Origin: Papiliotrema nemorosa
Taxonomy: Eukaryota; Basidiomycota; Tremellomycetes; Tremellales; Rhynchogastremaceae
Direction: 5' to 3'
Length of the DNA: 64,000 bases
NCBI GenBank assembly: GCA_032158125.1
Contig: JASKOT010000049.1
Span: forward strand, 21,428-85,427
The number at the start of each line of letters is the position of its first letter. Within the stretch, counting starts at the first letter, position 1. The notes below the pieces were generated by a model. The model saw only the letters and a list, made by a program, of their open reading frames with translations. It did no database searches and had not been told where the DNA came from. Below, one piece after another: positions 24,001 to 36,723 of this stretch. The translations under genes were made by a program, and so were the position numbers.

Positions 24001-27000
24001 TTGTTTTTCCGTCTGATTCAGGAGACCTTTTCTTCTTTGACTTGGTCCGTTGAGATATCCCTTGTGACGGTGCGGCGGACGCTTGATCTTGAGTGTTGGT
24101 CGGTGTGATGGGTGATACAGCATCTCTATCCGCTTGAGTGGCTGGAGGAAGGTTTTTGAACTCGTCCCCAAGCGGAGACACATCAACAGAACTTGCAAGA
24201 TGTACGTTGTCTGCTCCGATCGGCTCAATGTAAGGTCGCTTGGCTTTGATCACCTCGTCTTTTTCCTCCTCGGCGATTGCATCAGTACCGCCCTTCAGTT
24301 TGTCAACCTTCTGCCTATGGGCTTGACGTGAGGGATCGTTCCGACTCAAGGGTTTAGACGACTTTGCAATCCCATCCTGAATGGATGCAGAATCAACCTT
24401 GAATGTCTTGTTTGGATCAATTGCAGATTGCGCTTGCAATGCTCTTGCGCCCTTTGGACTTGTTTCCATCTTGACAAAGTCATCGTCGTGCTCACTGGTT
24501 GGAAGGAGAACATTGTTGTATGCTGTATTGGAAGCTGAGTCTTCACTAAACTCATCATCACTGTCTGCTGGCAAAGCAACCTTGTCTGCTTCTTGTTCCT
24601 CCCATGTTGCAGCATTTGCTCTTTGACCCTTCCTCTCTTTGTTATATGCCATGTTGGACCCAATCGTGTTTGAATCTTTGAGCATTTGCACCTTGAAGTC
24701 TTCTCTGTTCAACTTATGGAGCTTCCCTAGTCTCTCCCTGCCCAAAGCCTCAGAGGCATCAGTCTTGGTAAACAAACCGTCTCCCAGAGATTTTGTGTTG
24801 TCGGTGTCTCTGCCAAGAGCAGAAGGAGGGGCTTCACTATTCTCTTGGACAGATGGTTGTGGAGCCTGTGGCAGGTCTTCTCGGAATTTTGAGTGCCTCT
24901 TAGTATCCTTCTGTGCCGTTTTCTTCAAAGTTTCCAAACCTTGCAACATTCCCACAGGATCAGCTGCCGATTTACTTGTGGATTGCTGCTCTGAAAATGC
25001 ACTTGACTCAGGTGACATCTTGGCTTTAAGGTCTTCTTCCTTTTTGACGCTTTCTTTGGCTCTCTGAGACTTGGTCAGCGTAGGTTGCATATGGCCCTGC
25101 TGTGTTCTGTGATTCACCAGTTCTTTTTTCAGTCTGGCTGCCTCCATGTCAAATTTGTCATCTGGATTTGGGTGATTCTGCTTTTCATCCTGGTTGATGT
25201 ATTGTTCTTCTGCATCTTGCACTTTCTGCTTGGCTTCTTCAGATACTGAACCTTAGCAAAGTAGCAACTAGCAGGAATCATAACTCACAAACATCAGGAG
25301 CGCAGGAGTCCAGTCCTTTTTGCTCTGCTTCCTCGAGTGCATTGTAATTTGGCCCTTGGTCTCCCTCTTCAAGCAAGCTTTGTGTCTTCTTGTGGCCCAC
25401 TGCTTGCTGTAATTATGTCAGTGATGGTTCTCAAGGCTCAACAGCAACATGCCTTGGCCTTGCGCCTTTTTGCAGCCTCCATGTCATACCCTTCATCTGC
25501 GTTGGGATGTTCCGGTGTTTGGTCCTGATTGAGATATGCATCCTCTGCATCTTGGACTTTTTGCATTGCCTTTTCAGACACTGTACCTTCAGCTCAAATC
25601 ACTTTGGCCTCTGATTTGAGGAAACACACAAACTCCAGGAGTTTGAGCATCCAGTCTCTTCTGCTCTTCCTCATTCTCCTTATTTTCCCTTGTCTTCTCT
25701 TGCAATCTTTCTTTCTCTGCCTCCTCTTTTGCTCTTTTGGTTTTGATATCTAAGGTCATCTTAGGCTCACAACAAAGAGGAAATTCTCACCAGTCTGAAT
25801 CTTGTTTACGTTCCGTACTCTCTGAGGTCTCCTTGATCTGCTCTTTTCATACTCTTCATCTACGTCAGAATCTGATTCTTCAGGTTCATCTTCCACTTCA
25901 TCCAGAGTGGCCCTCTTGCTCTGTGCCTTGGCTTGAGAAGCAGGAGGTCCAGCAGACGTGACTGCATCAGCAAGTACACTCTCCTGCCTAACAGTTTCTC
26001 TGTTATCCTGCTGTCTTGTCCTCTTTGTGTCATCTTCATAGTTAGCGCCAAATGCCCAGGTAGACTTTTAAATGTCAAGACCAACCTTCTGACTCAAACT
26101 CAAGGGGGTTACGTGCCAAATCATCCATTGTATCTAGTCCACCATTCTCCCTTGCTAACTCTTCTCTTGCAGCAATGGCAGATGCAGGAGTGGGAGGTTG
26201 CTCCTCCTCCACGTTCACCTTGCTTCTCTTGTTCCTCTTTTTCAGCCCAAAGGTTCCACCTGACTCCTTGTCTCTTTTTGAATCATCCTCGCTGACTTCT
26301 GTACTTTCATCCCCACTATTCTCTTGGTCAATGGTCTCTACTTGGCTGTTGCCCAGGTGCAGACCATCAGGCTTTTGCTTTGACTTCCTTGACTTGAGTG
26401 AGGCCGCAGCTGTCATCTCTTCATCTACATCTTCATCCTTTTCACCATCATCTACTTTTGTTTTGTCTTTCTTTTTTCTTTCAAGAGGATTTTTATCCCC
26501 TTTTTTGGGTGTCTTCCCCTTTGTCTGCATGAAAACATCTTCCTCTTCCTCAGAATCCCTGTCATCCCCGTCCCCATTTGCAGTCTGCCTTGGGCGTCCT
26601 TTGGTTGATTGTGCATTCCACTTGTAACCACCATCCCAGCCTTCTTGTTCTGCTGCCCTCAGATCCCTCTGATACTGCATTGACTGCTGTGCATGCTCTT
26701 CCAGTCGCTGATCATACTGCGCTCTTGATTCCTGTGGCTGTCTTATGGGGGGTGGTGGAGGAGGCGCAAGATTGTTATATTGTTGTTGCTGAACACGCAG
26801 AGGAGGCGGTTGATGGAGCTGATAATCTCCATATTCATCCCATGTCTCATAATCCTGCGCTTGTTGACGTTGCGGTCGTCTCAATGGAGCATTTTGACGT
26901 TGTGGTTGTGCCATCTCTGGCGTGTCTGCCATTTGCTCTCTTCTGCGTTGCGATTTGGCGTTTGACTTAGGATCAACGAGATCATCTTCTGCTTGGTAGT

Positions 27001-29144
27001 CATCGTCAGCGTCATCTGCCTCGACTCGTGCTGCTTTCTTCTGCTTGTTTGACTTTGCTCTGGCCGGTGCAGGTCCATCTTCCGGCACATCTCTTGTTTT
27101 CGCTTTGCGCGGGGCTTTGGAGGGTCCAACCGCCCCGTCGTCAGAGTCTTCGACCTCTTGTCCATGATCTCGAACCCTAGTCTTCTTCTTTCGTACTTTG
27201 ACATCCTCACTGAGGCTGGTCCTTCGTCTAGCACTGGCATTGTCATCTTTATCCTTGACTTTCGTCTTCTTCTTGACCTTGCGTATAACACCAGCATCAT
27301 CCACTTCGCTGACCTCGTCATATGCCGAGTCCGACTCTTCGCCCTTCACTTTTGTCTTGTCCCTCTTCTTCAGCTTTGTCTTATCTTTCGCTTTGGCATC
27401 CTCCTCCGAGCCGTCCTCCACCTTTGCCTTCTTCTTCTTTTTCCTTTTGACTTCCTTTCCATCGTCCAAAACAACCTCTTCTTCAGATGACGAGACGGCA
27501 ACTTTCTCCTTGTCTTTCTTGGCTTTGTCTTTCTTTTTCACCGTCGCTGCCTTCTCGTCCCCAGACCCCTTGCTTTCATTCGTCTTCTTCTTCTTCTTTT
27601 TGACTTTCCTACCGTCTTCGATGACTTCCTCCTCTGAGCTAGATGCCGCTACCTCCTCCTTTCCCTTCTTCGCCTTGTCTTTCTTCTTGACAGTCGCTGG
27701 CGCGTCGTCCTCTACGCTCAGCCTTCTCCCCTTCTGTTCTTTCCCCCGTTTCACTTCTTTTTCCTTCTCCTTCTCCTTGATCGGAGAGACCTCATCGACG
27801 ACGGCTGCTTTTGTCTTCTTTACCTTGGCTTTGGCTGGTTCGATTTCCTCCTCCACATCGACCGTCTTCTCCGACATGATTTCGACCTCTTTCACCTGTC
27901 CAGTCACCGGATCCCTGACCCATATTTTCTCCTTCTCCTTCCTGACCTTCTCTTTTTTCGTCTTCTGCTCTTCGGGTGAATCCACTTTCACCTTGGTTTG
28001 ACGTTGCTTCACTTTCTCAGCCTCCCGCGCTGCTTTACGGAGCGCCTCAGCTTCAGCTGCCGCGTGACCAGCTCGGGCGGAAAGAGGGGCCGGTATGGGG
28101 TCTTTGACGTCCACGGGAACTTTTACCTTACCGGGGTAAATGTAGTCTGGCTTGACGTGCACACCACCCTGATTGTCAGCATCTCCATAAGCTATCGGGC
28201 CACTTTCGTACGGGGGTTAGGGGTATTCTTGTACCGCCCGGAGCCAGTACCTCGCTTGATGGGACCCAGTATGGATTTGCAAACTGGACATGATCAGCCT
28301 TGGTCTTGGAAGATTCGACAGTGCTTACCATTGGTGACGGAGCTGGATGACCCGAGTCTACCCTACTTGGCGAGACCGTCTCCTCTGATCGCAATTTCTC
28401 CAATACTCTGGGGTTATGTCCCCCTGTCAGAGGTTGTTCTCCCGGCTTAGGCACTGGTCGACCGATCGGGTCTCGTCCCGTAGGCCAAGGGACGTACGGG
28501 AATGCAGAATGGTACGGTGCAGCGCTGACTGGAACTCCTGCTCGAATCTCGCCAGGTGTAGCTTGCGTATACATCCTAGGCACATACGGCGTCACAGGCT
28601 CTGGTTCCAGACCTTGGCTGTGCAGATTGGTAAAGTACGGAGCCTGTGGTGTACCTGGTTGAGACCCCGGGATGTTGAGACGGACAGGTCGGCCATCTGG
28701 GCCAATATGTGTCACGCCAATCTCGACATTCTTTGGTCCTTGACGAGGATCAAAATGGACGGTGGCACTGTTCCCACCCGGTAAATGGGCGGTCATGGAA
28801 TCATGGTCTCGTCGTGGGGGTACGCCTGTGCCTGCTCCACCGCCACCAGGCGGGCCGCGATCGCGTGGTTCTTCGTCTCTTGGCGGTCGGCTAGAGTCAG
28901 GAGGGATGGTCGCTGGTGTTGCAGGTGCGGAAGTCGCGGGAGGTGGACCTGCCGGAGCAGCAGTAGGGGGAGCGCTAGCCGCCGCTGGCGTGGGAGCTGG
29001 CAGTGCATCGCTAACGGATCCGGTTCCAGGAAGCCAGCCCTTGATATGTAGCACAGAGAGAAGTAAGACGCCGAGGAGGATGCCAACTAGCGTGACGGCC
29101 TCCCAAAACGCCTTGTTGGGATTCGTGCTGGGCTGGTTGACCAT
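21060..29144 (-). CDS. Giant membrane-anchored, Lys/Glu-rich repetitive protein (2558 residues, ten exons)
   Basis: Ten exons join in phase to one 2558-codon frame: 29144-28212, 28168-26086, 26033-25791, 25749-25630, 25580-25453, 25406-25289, 25245-23977, 23938-23906, 23857-23771 and 23722-21060. One intron (25407-25452) is GC-AG; the rest are GT-AG. The N terminus has a single membrane helix (AVTLVGILLGVLLLSVLHI), then a Pro/Gly/Ala-rich stretch. About 1,900 residues of polyampholyte follow, with alternating Lys and acidic Ser clusters (SSSEEEV), coiled-coil Lys/Glu runs and duplicated units. The last ~330 residues hold about six hydrophobic segments, including LYSLLTLATVVLWMEGA, YLRLFLFALQGVITLLLLRQG and GVILITFVALMFFFGEI. 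The first ATG in frame is 29144. No family recognised. It may tether or space membranes, but that is inference. Confidence 0.75.
25289..25749 (-). repeat. Duplicated exon-intron unit within the giant gene
   Basis: Two tandem units encode LDAQTPGV|LSEKAMQKVQDAED and LDSCAPDV|LSEEAKQKVQDAEE, followed by NQD...HPNxDxxxDMEAAxxxK. Each has an intron at the same place in the same phase (25581-25629 and 25246-25288). The intron position was therefore copied along with the coding sequence, indicating duplication at the DNA level. Confidence 0.75.
27415..27700 (-). repeat. Tandem ~48-residue Lys-rich/acidic-Ser repeats in the giant protein
   Basis: Two adjacent copies of ATVKKKDKAKKxKExVAxSSSEEEV...DG(R/K)xVKxKKKKK. 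Each alternates a basic block with a casein-kinase-2-like acidic Ser cluster, reminiscent of Nopp140-type arrangement. Similarity to that family is only compositional. Confidence 0.7.
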
Positions 29145-34164: not shown

Positions 34165-36723
34165 ATGAATCGCAGACAGCGTAATCTGCTCAAGTTGGTT
34201 GGCGCTCTAGCAGGCGCAGCGAGTGTTCAGGCGTGTTATTATCAAGCTCTCAATCTGGAGAATCCTTCCGATTACTACTATCGATACTGCTACGCAGGCG
34301 TGAGTTGTGACTCAATACCTGTTGGTTCCAAGTCGCTCATCACCCAGTGTACAGCAATCCAAGCGGCTCAACCGGACTATACTGCCTGTTGCACACCCCT
34401 CCCAGCGGGTGCAACAGCGCCTGCAACTTGTGGTCAGCTATCCAAATCACATGAACAAGCTGGGACGACTTGCCAATGGGGTGCCGTGCCCACCACTGAC
34501 TTTCCTCAGCAGTACAATTATGCCCCATCCACCCAAGGGGGTAACAATCAGAAATCAACTGTATGGGTCACAAGTACCACAACTACTGCTTGTGCTCAAG
34601 GTGCCTCAAGCCCATATGTCCCCTCGGCACCTGTATCAAGTCTGTCAAGCTCCAAGTTTCCCGATGTCAGCCCAGTCTATGCATCTTCACCTCCTTATGT
34701 CCATGAAGACACCTCATCAGGCAAGCTGGCGCAAGCTACTTCCTCTCCGCCTGCTCCACCTCCTCCAGCCCCTTCCTCATCTCCCTGCAAGTCAAATCCT
34801 ACATATGTTCACCAAGAACCCAGCTCATCCCCTCCTCCTTGTCCGCCAGTGTCTTCCAGCAAACAGGCTGAGTATACCTCAAGTCCTCCCCCTGTCAGCC
34901 CAACCACATGGACTCCACCATGTATACCCAGCCAACAAGGTCTGATCTATGGTACCTATGTGCCATGCTCTGGTTCAAGCTGTCCGCATGTTGGGTGCGC
35001 TGTCTCCACCTTGCAGAGTGGCAAGTGCGGTACTGACGTTGCAGTGCCGCACCACCATCTGGCTTTCTGGGCGATCCTCAGAAGCGCAACGGACCACCTC
35101 AAACTGGATCATGCCCCCATGTTGGGTGAGGATCCTCATCCCTGTTCAATGATGAGGGAAATTCGTGTCTGACAACTATGCAGTGAAGCAGCACCTTCTG
35201 ATTTTACAAGAGAGCAACAGAAGAGAGCTGCTGTGCCAACTGTCACACCTGCTCTTGTAGGGAAGCATGACAATCTCAGAAGACCTGTTGTGGGGTATGA
35301 ACCACCCCAAGCCAATGACAAGAGAGCATTACCTATGGCAAATATTGACAATGTAAAGCAACCCCCTCCACCACCTAGAAACCTTGAAGATGTGGAGAAA
35401 CGGGGCAATACAGTGATAGTCACCTCAACTGTCACTGGATCTCAGACTTTTTACAATTGTGCCGGAACCTGGATCTTGGGGACATCAAGCTATGTGTCTT
35501 CATTTTCAAGCAGCGGTGCAGCTGGACTTGCCATGCCGTCCATCAGCTCAGGAGCAGGTGAGTCAACCTCCCACTTGCAATATGCTTTGTGGACTCTGAC
35601 CCATTTCCAGGATCAGCCCCTACAGGAGCAAGAAGAAAGAGAGAACTGCCAATCACATTCACAACTATCAGCACACTTTTCCCGACAGCAAGCTGTCCCT
35701 ACCCAGGAGGAAAAATCCCAGGAACTCAACCCACTGCATCTTACATTTCTGGTCCTATCCCCTCTGGCTCAAAATGCTTCTGCAAATCTGGATATCAACA
35801 ACCTTCCCCACCCTCAGCGAACAGCTCTCCTGTGTCATCTCCTGTTAGGCCATACAGCAGCTCAACTAAAGGTGGCTTGGAGATGAGTATCAGTAGTGGT
35901 GCTGGTGCTGTGCCCTCATTCTCGGTCTCTCAAGATATGGCAAGGAGAGCAATGGTCACGCCAGCTCCCTATGGAGGCCAGTTGATGCACAAGAGAGAAG
36001 CCATGGTAGAATGTCCTTGTGAATGTGGACAGGTTATATCTGTCTCTCCTCCCACAGCTTCTCATTCTTCAAGTGCATCAGGCGGACTGGCAGGATTCTC
36101 AATTAACTCTGGGGCGGGGTCAGTATCTCTTGTATCTGTCACAGTACATGCTCACTGGATAGGGCTGCACCAGTGGCTTTCTACACAGTAGACAATGCCA
36201 GGAGAGGGGCATATCCAACCAATCAACCAAACATTGCACGAGATTACATTGCAGTAGCAGGTGGCTTTCTCAAGCAAGATGTCCCCCCTTCAGATTGGAA
36301 CCGCCCAGAAGCCCCTGAAAAGAGGCAGCTCAATAGTCTTCTTGCAAAGCGTGAAGCACCCCCTGAAGTGGTCACCAGTACCAAGTGGATCACCACTGAC
36401 AACTGTGCCCCAACATCCACTGCTTCCGGATGGAACTCACATGAAAGTCATGATCATGATGAAGATGAAGAATGTGATGAAGATCAGGGTTCTGCAAGCG
36501 ATTATACCATTGTATATGATGCTACATCAAGCGGGAAACTGGCTCAAGCTACATCCAGTCCGTCTCCTGCTGGTGCACCATATACCTACCAGCCCGCCTC
36601 TTCTTCTGGTGCACCTCATGTTGGTATGTCTGCTATGGATCCTGCACAAATCAGAGCTGATATGAAGGTGACGGGACAAGGCCACCAGGTTTTGCTGTTG
36701 ATGCGCCAGAGAGGAGAAAATAG
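34165..36723 (+). CDS. Secreted modular protein with repeated dibasic (Kex2-type) processing sites
   Basis: Six exons (34165-34994, 35045-35125, 35184-35557, 35611-36118, 36163-36623, 36689-36723) join in phase to 762 residues. A signal peptide (LLKLVGALAGAASVQA) leads to a Cys-rich domain of about 70 residues, then Ser/Pro-rich stretches. Six units follow the pattern [AV]G, then an A/S-x-P-like start, then 8-15 residues, then KR or RR. Examples are VG|AAPPSGFLGDPQKR, VG|EAAPSDFTREQQKR, AG|SAPTGARRKR and AG|AAPVAFYTVDNARR. Five of the six begin at an exon junction. Further sites read NDKR, EKR, HKR and AKR. SSGKLAQATSSP occurs twice. It may be a Kex2-processed precursor or a wall protein. No family recognised. 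Nearly all of it is CpG-poor. Confidence 0.72.

What the first reader, a model, noticed from the sequence alone, without database searches (positions are those of the whole stretch)
34165..36723. Exon-modular secreted precursor with repeated dibasic cleavage sites
A 762-residue protein with a signal peptide is built from six units of the form [AV]G - A/S-x-P - 8 to 15 residues - KR/RR. Five begin at an exon boundary, and exon 2 (81 nt) is a phase-2 symmetric exon that could be duplicated freely. Additional DKR, EKR, HKR and AKR sites occur between units. The layout suggests a polyprotein cut by a Kex2-like protease into several secreted peptides, or a wall protein matured in pieces. I know no named family with this pattern. 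The joined exons divide exactly by three and each junction keeps phase.
Basis: partly seen in the sequence, partly recalled or inferred. Interest (0 to 1): 0.78.

Follow-up and report, generated by a model that had tools for sequence, protein, structure and literature searches.

The report
Secreted fungal protein, probably protease-cut
A fungus encodes what looks like a secreted protein with a conserved cysteine-rich head and a tail dotted with protease cut sites, so it is probably chopped into several peptides on its way out of the cell; relatives exist in Kwoniella and Cryptococcus, and what the peptides do is unknown.

Summary
The five-intron, 762-residue model reproduces exactly, but a sixth, in-frame 48-nt intron (34300-34347) was missed. 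A paralogue has an intron at the same point and aligned relatives lack those 16 residues, so the protein is 746 aa. Only 3 of 6 units fit the stated formula. Five of six sit on exon junctions. A motif built only from relatives' units ranks four of them first among 732 positions, three of those on junctions. There are 12 dibasic runs against 1.5 in shuffles. The genome encodes a Kex2-type protease.

Relatives in three Kwoniella and Cryptococcus neoformans share the head and many dibasic sites. Best reading: a Kex2-processed polyprotein, a degenerate variant of the known KEP kind joined to an undescribed cysteine domain. It fails approximate KEP repeat criteria; one Kwoniella relative passes the identity part. 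Against a conserved hormone: in Kwoniella the stretch before the cut is less conserved than the linkers, and the CxC stretch after it is better conserved. Secretion, cleavage and function are inferred, not shown.

The parts
34165..34299 (+). exon 1: start codon, signal-peptide-like N terminus (MNRRQRNLLKLVGALAGAASVQA, judged by eye) and first part of the cysteine domain
   Evidence: relatives aligned
   Evidence: GTGAGT...ACCCAG; same position as the 56-nt intron of the paralogue at G000:C28; the 16 residues are absent from the 4 relatives aligned
34348..34994 (+). exon 2: rest of the cysteine domain, then Ser/Pro-rich stretch
34234..34506 (+). cysteine-rich domain (interrupted by intron 1), in the window protein C-x17-C-x3-C-x12-CC-x12-C-x13-C, shared with relatives and the paralogue
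   Evidence: alignment of 5 head domains, 29 invariant columns, 7 of them Cys; no Pfam match, no PDB sequence match
34995..35044 (+). intron 2, 50 nt, interrupts Gly261 of unit 1 (phase 2)
   Evidence: CTGAC branch-like site 12 nt from the end; retention gives a stop after residue 329
34990..35087 (+). unit 1: VG|AAPPSGFLGDPQ-KR, residues 260-275, across intron 2
   Evidence: top motif hit, 16.5 bits
35045..35125 (+). exon 3, 81 nt, phase 2 to phase 2
35121..35226 (+). unit 2: VG|EAAPSDFTREQQ-KR, residues 287-302, across intron 3
   Evidence: third motif hit, 9.8 bits
35126..35183 (+). intron 3, 58 nt
   Evidence: GTGAGG...ATGCAG, CTGAC branch-like site; retention gives a stop
35184..35557 (+). 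exon 4: dibasic sites at residues 301, 320, 334, 360
35558..35610 (+). intron 4, 53 nt
   Evidence: GTGAGT...TTCCAG, CTGAC branch-like site; retention gives a stop
35554..35642 (+). unit 3 (degenerate): AG|SAPTGA-RRKR, residues 412-423, across intron 4
   Evidence: only 3 residues between SAP and the basic run; not among the motif's printed best
35611..36118 (+). exon 5
35901..35948 (+). unit 4: AGAVPSFSVSQDMA-RR, residues 510-525, no intron
   Evidence: fourth motif hit, 6.5 bits, near the mean shuffle maximum of 6.3
35991..36026 (+). KR site (540) followed by EAMVECPCEC, resembling the post-cut CxC segment of relatives (RRR-GIMVRDTCVCP)
   Evidence: resemblance by eye
36119..36162 (+). intron 5, 44 nt
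   Evidence: GTCAGT...GGATAG, CTCAC branch-like site; retention gives a stop
36114..36205 (+). unit 5: AG|AAPVAFYTVDNA-RR, residues 581-596, across intron 5
   Evidence: second motif hit, 11.1 bits; compare NTAPASFTVDNH-RR in C. neoformans P0003
36163..36623 (+). exon 6
36320..36409 (+). KR-QLNSLLA-KR-EAPPEVVTSTKWITTDNCA: short peptide between two dibasic sites, then a Cys motif
   Evidence: same order in P0001 and P0005; in P0002 the second site is not dibasic; the search pattern did not match P0003
36624..36688 (+). intron 6, 65 nt
   Evidence: GTATGT...CACCAG; weakest branch-like site (CTGAT, 32 nt from the end); retention leaves an open frame
36689..36723 (+). exon 7 and stop
36620..36720 (+). 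unit 6 (degenerate): VG|FAVDAPE-RRK-stop, residues 735-746, across intron 6
   Evidence: not ranked in register by the motif; the 4 relatives aligned also end within a few residues of a last basic run

Best explanation
A secreted precursor of a family found here in Cryptococcus and Kwoniella. It enters the secretory pathway, folds its N-terminal cysteine domain, and is cut in the late Golgi by the genome's Kex2-type protease (Kex1-type trimming assumed) at about 11-12 dibasic sites. The products would be one ~250-residue piece carrying the cysteine domain and a set of smaller peptides (7 to 100 residues), several rich in Ser/Thr/Pro. Several of these end in a G-x-A-P-x-x-F-x-x-D-x tail just before the cut. 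The pieces most likely act outside the cell, at the surface or matrix, as the Rep1 peptides of Ustilago do. Shown: open gene model, sites, relatives, Kex2-type gene. Inferred: splicing, secretion, cleavage, place of action, function.
For: Dibasic runs: 12 observed against 1.51 in shuffles; four relatives 8-10 against 1.7-2.5. A motif from relatives' units only, basic residues unscored, ranks window units 260, 581, 287 and 510 as the four best of 732 positions, and a dibasic pair follows one residue further on in all four. Relatives share the head domain; P0001 and P0005 also share the short KR-bounded peptide and the VTST..TTDDCA motif in order; the four relatives end near a last basic run. 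The genome has a proprotein-convertase P domain beside a catalytic exon whose best PDB match is Kexin. The paralogue has the head but no KR or RR, so the sites belong to the tail module. Precedent: Rep1 and Hum3, Kex2-delimited pieces in a basidiomycete, Hum3 with a hydrophobin domain (PMC4617103, passages).
Against: No protein or transcript data. Two of six units are degenerate; the fourth motif hit (6.5) is about an average shuffle maximum (6.3) and only two hits exceed the 95% level of 10.2. By a 65%-identity grouping none of the window's 10 fragments of 8-100 aa pair up, nor do those of P0002. phmmer of relatives' tails against the window tail gave one weak match from P0005 and none from P0003 or P0001. 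The short KR-bounded peptide is not kept in P0002, and the pattern did not match P0003. In three Kwoniella pairs the 13 residues before the cut are less conserved than linkers (31-46% against 64-69%), which argues against one conserved bioactive tail. The AlphaFold model of P0005 is uninterpretable (mean pLDDT 35.4).
Confidence: 0.6

Rival explanations
1. A surface or wall glycoprotein whose working part is the cysteine domain. The Ser/Thr/Pro-rich tail is a glycosylated stalk, trimmed by Kex2 at one or a few sites only, and the fragments have no function of their own.
For: The cysteine domain is the most conserved part after the signal region (97-100% in three Kwoniella pairs, against 64-69% in linkers and 31-46% before the cuts). 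The paralogue keeps only the head and a Ser/Thr-rich tail without dibasic sites. Ywp1 of Candida is a wall protein whose Kex2-cut propeptide stays attached (PMC6258133, abstract).
Against: Eight to twelve dibasic runs in each of five proteins is more than trimming needs. No GPI-like C terminus is seen by eye.
Confidence: 0.25
2. The segments before the cuts are species-specific signalling or antagonistic peptides that diversify quickly, as pheromone-type peptides can.
For: In three Kwoniella pairs the 13 residues before the cuts change faster than linkers, and tails are more alike within a protein than between proteins (difference 0.105, label permutation p 0.0002). Tails are fairly homogeneous in P0005 (mean identity 0.51) and P0003 (0.48). 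Four of 11 internal window cuts are followed by X-A (KR-EA twice, KR-AA, RR-GA), a Ste13-like pattern (judged by eye).
Against: In P0002 and P0001 the tails are hardly more alike than between species (0.26, 0.28), and in the window protein not at all (0.21), which fits loss of constraint equally well. In the P0003/P0004 pair the tails are not faster (103 of 110 against 293 of 333). Stretches 16-24 residues before the cut are variable too, and alignment there is uncertain.
Confidence: 0.12
3. Chance enrichment of basic pairs in a low-complexity secreted protein that is never cut.
For: Low-complexity composition; no protein-level data.
Against: None of 5000 shuffles reaches the window's count (maximum 7 against 12); relatives are enriched too.
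Confidence: 0.03

Closest known systems
Homologues: Kwoniella dendrophila L201_006946 (P0001), K. bestiolae I302_108503 (P0002), K. mangroviensis I204_01521 (P0005), Cryptococcus neoformans C356_04220 (P0003)
   Same: N-terminal cysteine domain with CC pair; many dibasic runs; in part G-x-x-P-x-x-[FY]-x-x-D tails before the cut; end within a few residues of the last basic run
   Different: The three Kwoniella proteins have three, and P0003 two, fragments of 53-84 residues each with two CxC motifs; in the window protein CxC is rare and the middle fragments differ
Kex2-processed repeat proteins (KEPs; PMC6339444, PMC7329392)
   Same: Apparently secreted precursor with several peptides bounded by KR/RR
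   Different: Repeats too divergent (0 passing pairs) and a 251-residue first fragment; carries a conserved cysteine-rich head
Rep1 and Hum3 of Ustilago maydis (PMC4617103, passages)
   Same: Basidiomycete precursors with Kex2-delimited pieces; Hum3 also joins them to a hydrophobin domain
   Different: No sequence comparison was made here; Hum3's hydrophobin domain follows the repeats, whereas this head comes first, and its Cys spacing is not that of a hydrophobin (recalled)
Paralogue G000:C28:213124-212400 (-)
   Same: Same head domain, same intron 1 position, SGKLAQ-type motif
   Different: 222 aa, no KR or RR, no units

Membership tests
KEP (Kex2-processed repeat protein) | Signal peptide | not testable with these tools
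   No predictor at hand; the N terminus looks right by eye and relatives begin similarly
KEP (Kex2-processed repeat protein) | At least three similar repeats of 8 aa or more between Kex2 sites | tested here: not met
   Approximate test with 65% identity and 70% coverage: window 0 pairs among 10 fragments; P0005 a group of 3 of 7; P0003 and P0001 groups of 2; P0002 none. The published detection procedure was not run
KEP (Kex2-processed repeat protein) | No separated sequence longer than 100 aa (PMC7329392 only) | tested here: not met
   First fragment 251 aa; 163-173 aa in four relatives
KEP (Kex2-processed repeat protein) | Kex2 sites enriched and a Kex2-type protease in the genome | tested here: met
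KEP (Kex2-processed repeat protein) | Peptides actually released | not testable with these tools
   Needs peptidomics
Cryptococcus/Kwoniella family of P0001, P0002, P0003, P0005 | Cysteine domain with the invariant Cys pattern | tested here: met
   44-51% identity to the head domains of P0001-P0003, 7 invariant Cys in 5 sequences with the paralogue
Cryptococcus/Kwoniella family of P0001, P0002, P0003, P0005 | Unit tail before dibasic sites | tested here: met
   Four best of 732 positions with a motif from relatives only; two further units not recognised, and only two hits exceed the 95% shuffle level
Cryptococcus/Kwoniella family of P0001, P0002, P0003, P0005 | Fragments with two CxC motifs after the cut | tested here: inconclusive
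   Two window fragments carry CxC, one with 1 and one with 2 overlapping
Umemura KEP type P-7 (#26; Cryptococcus and Talaromyces) | Sequence membership | not testable with these tools
   The list is in a supplement that could not be read; the paper's 100-aa limit makes identity doubtful

The most novel reading that the evidence does not exclude
A family of jelly-fungus yeasts and their kin in which a conserved cysteine-rich head is exported together with a string of Kex2-released peptides whose tails are species-specific and partly homogenised within each precursor: a recognition or antagonism system with a member in Cryptococcus neoformans, built in this species from units placed on exon junctions.
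Probability: 0.12. Interest if true: 0.75.

Novelty: new variant of a known kind. Interest (0 to 1): 0.42.

Why it matters
One KEP survey reports very few such precursors in Tremellomycetes (1.00 per strain; PMC7329392, passage of the abstract). Repeats as divergent as these would probably escape such identity filters, so secreted-peptide precursors in Cryptococcus relatives may be undercounted (inference). The family has a C. neoformans member, no Pfam match here, and a simple test (supernatant peptidomics). The unit-to-exon match is a small case of modular gene building.

Tried and rejected
AlphaFold on P0005 with four relatives (5 sequences): mean pLDDT 35.4, not interpreted, and no fold search was made. 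A PDB sequence search with the head-domain alignment gave nothing. Pfam gave one sub-threshold DUF5429 hit (E 2.1) for the window protein and nothing for the 5 relatives of A3. Protein searches scored only the 7986 and 7985 candidates sharing most words, so distribution is a lower bound; the profile search listed P0001, P0005, P0006 and P0007 but not P0002-P0004. P0006 is the window's own unspliced ORF. The head-only search scored nothing among 22 candidates, although P0001-P0003 carry that domain, so it says nothing about distribution.

phmmer of relatives' tail regions against the window tail gave only one weak match (P0005, best domain 10 bits; none for P0003 and P0001, none in shuffles), so the tail relation rests on the motif scan and on order. 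Simple exon duplication for all units was considered: the phases (2,2,1,2,1) and unlike intron sequences (by eye) do not favour it for all five, and introns in GG|T codons may be a general splice-site preference. Identity with KEP type P-7 could not be tested.

A locus-tag search found one paper holding CNAG_04220, on DNA repair; that tag was my guess at the H99 name and is not used. A C. neoformans secretome paper was looked at in passages only and gave nothing usable (PMC4600298). Literature searches (16: 3 papers, all listed; 20: 801 papers, 20 listed; 37: 27, 20 listed; 43: 1; 55: none; 63: 68, 12 listed) showed no paper on this gene that I could recognise from the listings; supplements and subscription papers were not searched.

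Full report
What is there. A further 48-nt stretch, 34300-34347, is bounded by GTGAGT and CAG, has no in-frame stop, and is best read as an intron. The paralogue at G000:C28:213124-212400 has a 56-nt intron (not divisible by 3) at the same codon. The four relatives aligned run YC..GC with no insertion, as does P0005. P0007, a relative from an unnamed source, reads another frame before the same point and ends at GHVG, where intron 2 begins here. That is what an unspliced reading across conserved introns 1 and 2 would give; this is my inference from its letters, without its DNA. The corrected protein has 746 residues in seven exons. Five of six introns carry CTGAC, CTCAC or CTCAT branch-like sites 12-15 nt from the end; intron 6 has only CTGAT, 32 nt away. 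Retaining introns 2-5 brings a stop, retaining 1 or 6 does not.

Is the unit pattern real? The formula was drawn from this protein, so I made a test that is not circular. A 13-column weight matrix was built from seven 15-residue units of relatives only (two each of P0002 and P0005, three of P0003; 21 other regex hits of other lengths were left out), basic residues not scored. Over 732 window positions the four best are 260 (16.5 bits), 581 (11.1), 287 (9.8) and 510 (6.5). Only the first two exceed the 95% level of shuffle maxima (10.2), and the fourth is near the mean maximum (6.3). All four are followed, after one more residue, by KR or RR. Three of the four lie on codons split by introns; the chance that the three best hits all fall on the six junction codons is about 3e-7 under random placement, a figure worked out after seeing the result. 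The units at 412 and 735 are short and the matrix does not rank them in register. So there are four recognisable units and two degenerate ones, five of the six on exon junctions.

Dibasic sites. After residue 24 there are 12 KR/RR runs against a shuffle mean of 1.51; four relatives have 8-10 against 1.7-2.5. For P0002 a few shuffles reach its count (p 0.0008). One locus with a proprotein-convertase P domain was found in the genome (counts there are lower bounds). Its catalytic exon matches Kexin at 4.8e-75 and Furin at 1.7e-49. A Kex2-type protease is therefore present. Cutting at the runs would give fragments of 251, 25, 17, 12, 24, 58, 100, 14, 53, 38, 7 and 98 residues.

Relatives. Protein searches gave Kwoniella dendrophila, K. 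bestiolae, K. mangroviensis, C. neoformans and three sequences without a species name, one of which (P0006) is the window's own ORF. Five aligned head domains (window, paralogue, P0001-P0003) share 29 invariant columns, seven of them Cys. No Pfam family reaches its cut-off and no PDB sequence matches. Searching this genome with P0005 and P0003 gives the window gene first and the C28 paralogue second, as expected of an orthologue. After the head the relatives have: fragments of 53-84 residues with two CxC motifs (three in each Kwoniella protein, two in P0003); a 38-39-residue fragment with one CxC; short fragments (19 and 8 residues in P0005, 11 and 8 in P0001, 11 in P0002); a fragment with a VTST..TTDDCA-type motif; and an end near the last basic run (P0003 also has 3-, 17-, 18- and 37-residue pieces, and P0001 one more CxC fragment near its end). 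The motif pattern matched P0001, P0002, P0005 and the window but not P0003, where I see TSTTWVITDDCG by eye. The window protein keeps the head, a short KR-bounded peptide, the TTDNCA motif and the basic end. It keeps the CxC pieces poorly.

A result against the simple peptide-hormone reading. Between three Kwoniella pairs, identity is 97-100% in the head, 64-69% in linkers, but only 31-46% in the 13 residues before the cuts (each Fisher p below 0.001). The profile around cuts shows 0.08-0.54 at positions -11 to -1 and higher values after the cut (0.81 at +1, 0.91 at +5, 0.95 at +11, but 0.38 at +2), where the CxC segment lies. Positions -24 to -16 are also variable (0.15-0.76), so the low is not confined to the tail, and alignment in such stretches is uncertain. 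The pair P0003/P0004 shows no such effect: 103 of 110 tail residues identical against 293 of 333 linker residues, p 0.11; a narrower tail definition on the same pair gave 74 of 77 against 322 of 366, p 0.04, in favour of conserved tails. Tails are somewhat more alike within a Kwoniella protein than between proteins (p 0.0002), driven mainly by P0005; two extracted tails, one each in P0002 and P0005, are artefacts of the last basic run and were left in. Two readings remain: relaxed spacer, or fast-changing species-specific peptides. I cannot separate them with these few sequences.

What is known. KEPs are defined by a signal peptide and repeats between Kex2 sites (PMC6339444, passages; PMC7329392, passages and its detection section). 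PMC7329392 reports 1.00 KEP per strain in Tremellomycetes and a type P-7 in Cryptococcus and Talaromyces; whether P0003 is of that type could not be tested. A Coprinopsis study detected KEP-derived peptides and saw no apparent phenotype in six kep knockouts (PMC9769878, passages). Rep1 of Ustilago is processed into 11 peptides that form surface fibrils, and Hum3 joins repeats with putative Kex2 motifs to a hydrophobin domain (PMC4617103, passages). Candida Ywp1 is a wall protein with a Kex2-made propeptide (PMC6258133, abstract).

Verdict. The window protein works like a KEP on paper but fails my approximate repeat-identity test (0 pairs among 10 fragments) and the 100-residue limit of one survey, so I do not file it as a KEP. 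It is a divergent member of a Cryptococcus/Kwoniella family in which an undescribed cysteine domain heads what looks like a Kex2-type polyprotein. Most likely the pieces act at the cell surface or in the matrix; this last step is inference with a low weight.

Noticed in passing
G000:C28:213124-212400 (-), locus L009: Paralogue of 222 aa with the same cysteine head, the same intron 1 position and a Ser/Thr-rich tail, but no KR or RR; its tail ends in CWCDHGTVTTCDDHTGRYYTW.
   Followed up: yes
window 34717-34746 and 36530-36559; also L009: The peptide SGKLAQATSS occurs twice in the window protein, and similar stretches (SGKLSEVTLS, SGKLAQPTSS) occur in the paralogue; a second repeated motif not tied to the dibasic sites.
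   Followed up: partly
window 35221-36355 (cuts at residues 301, 540, 595, 644): Four of 11 internal cuts are followed by X-A (KR-AA, KR-EA, RR-GA, KR-EA), like the Ste13 spacers of alpha-factor precursors (by eye).
   Followed up: no
window 35480-36120: Each SGAG-type unit is preceded by a related stretch (GLAMPSISSGAG, GLEMSISSGAG, GLAGFSINSGAG), so the repeat is longer than the unit for these three; the other three share SCPHVG or APHVG (by eye).
   Followed up: no
G000:C10 about 225960-228850, locus L012: The genome's Kex2-type protease gene, split by introns, with HGTRCAGE and GGTSAAAP motifs, a P domain and a membrane-like segment near the C terminus (motifs by eye).
   Followed up: partly
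window 24001-28000: Strong strand asymmetry (AT skew -0.382, GC skew -0.170) with a 713-codon minus-strand frame (26078-28216) that has a sub-threshold LEA_3a match.
   Followed up: no
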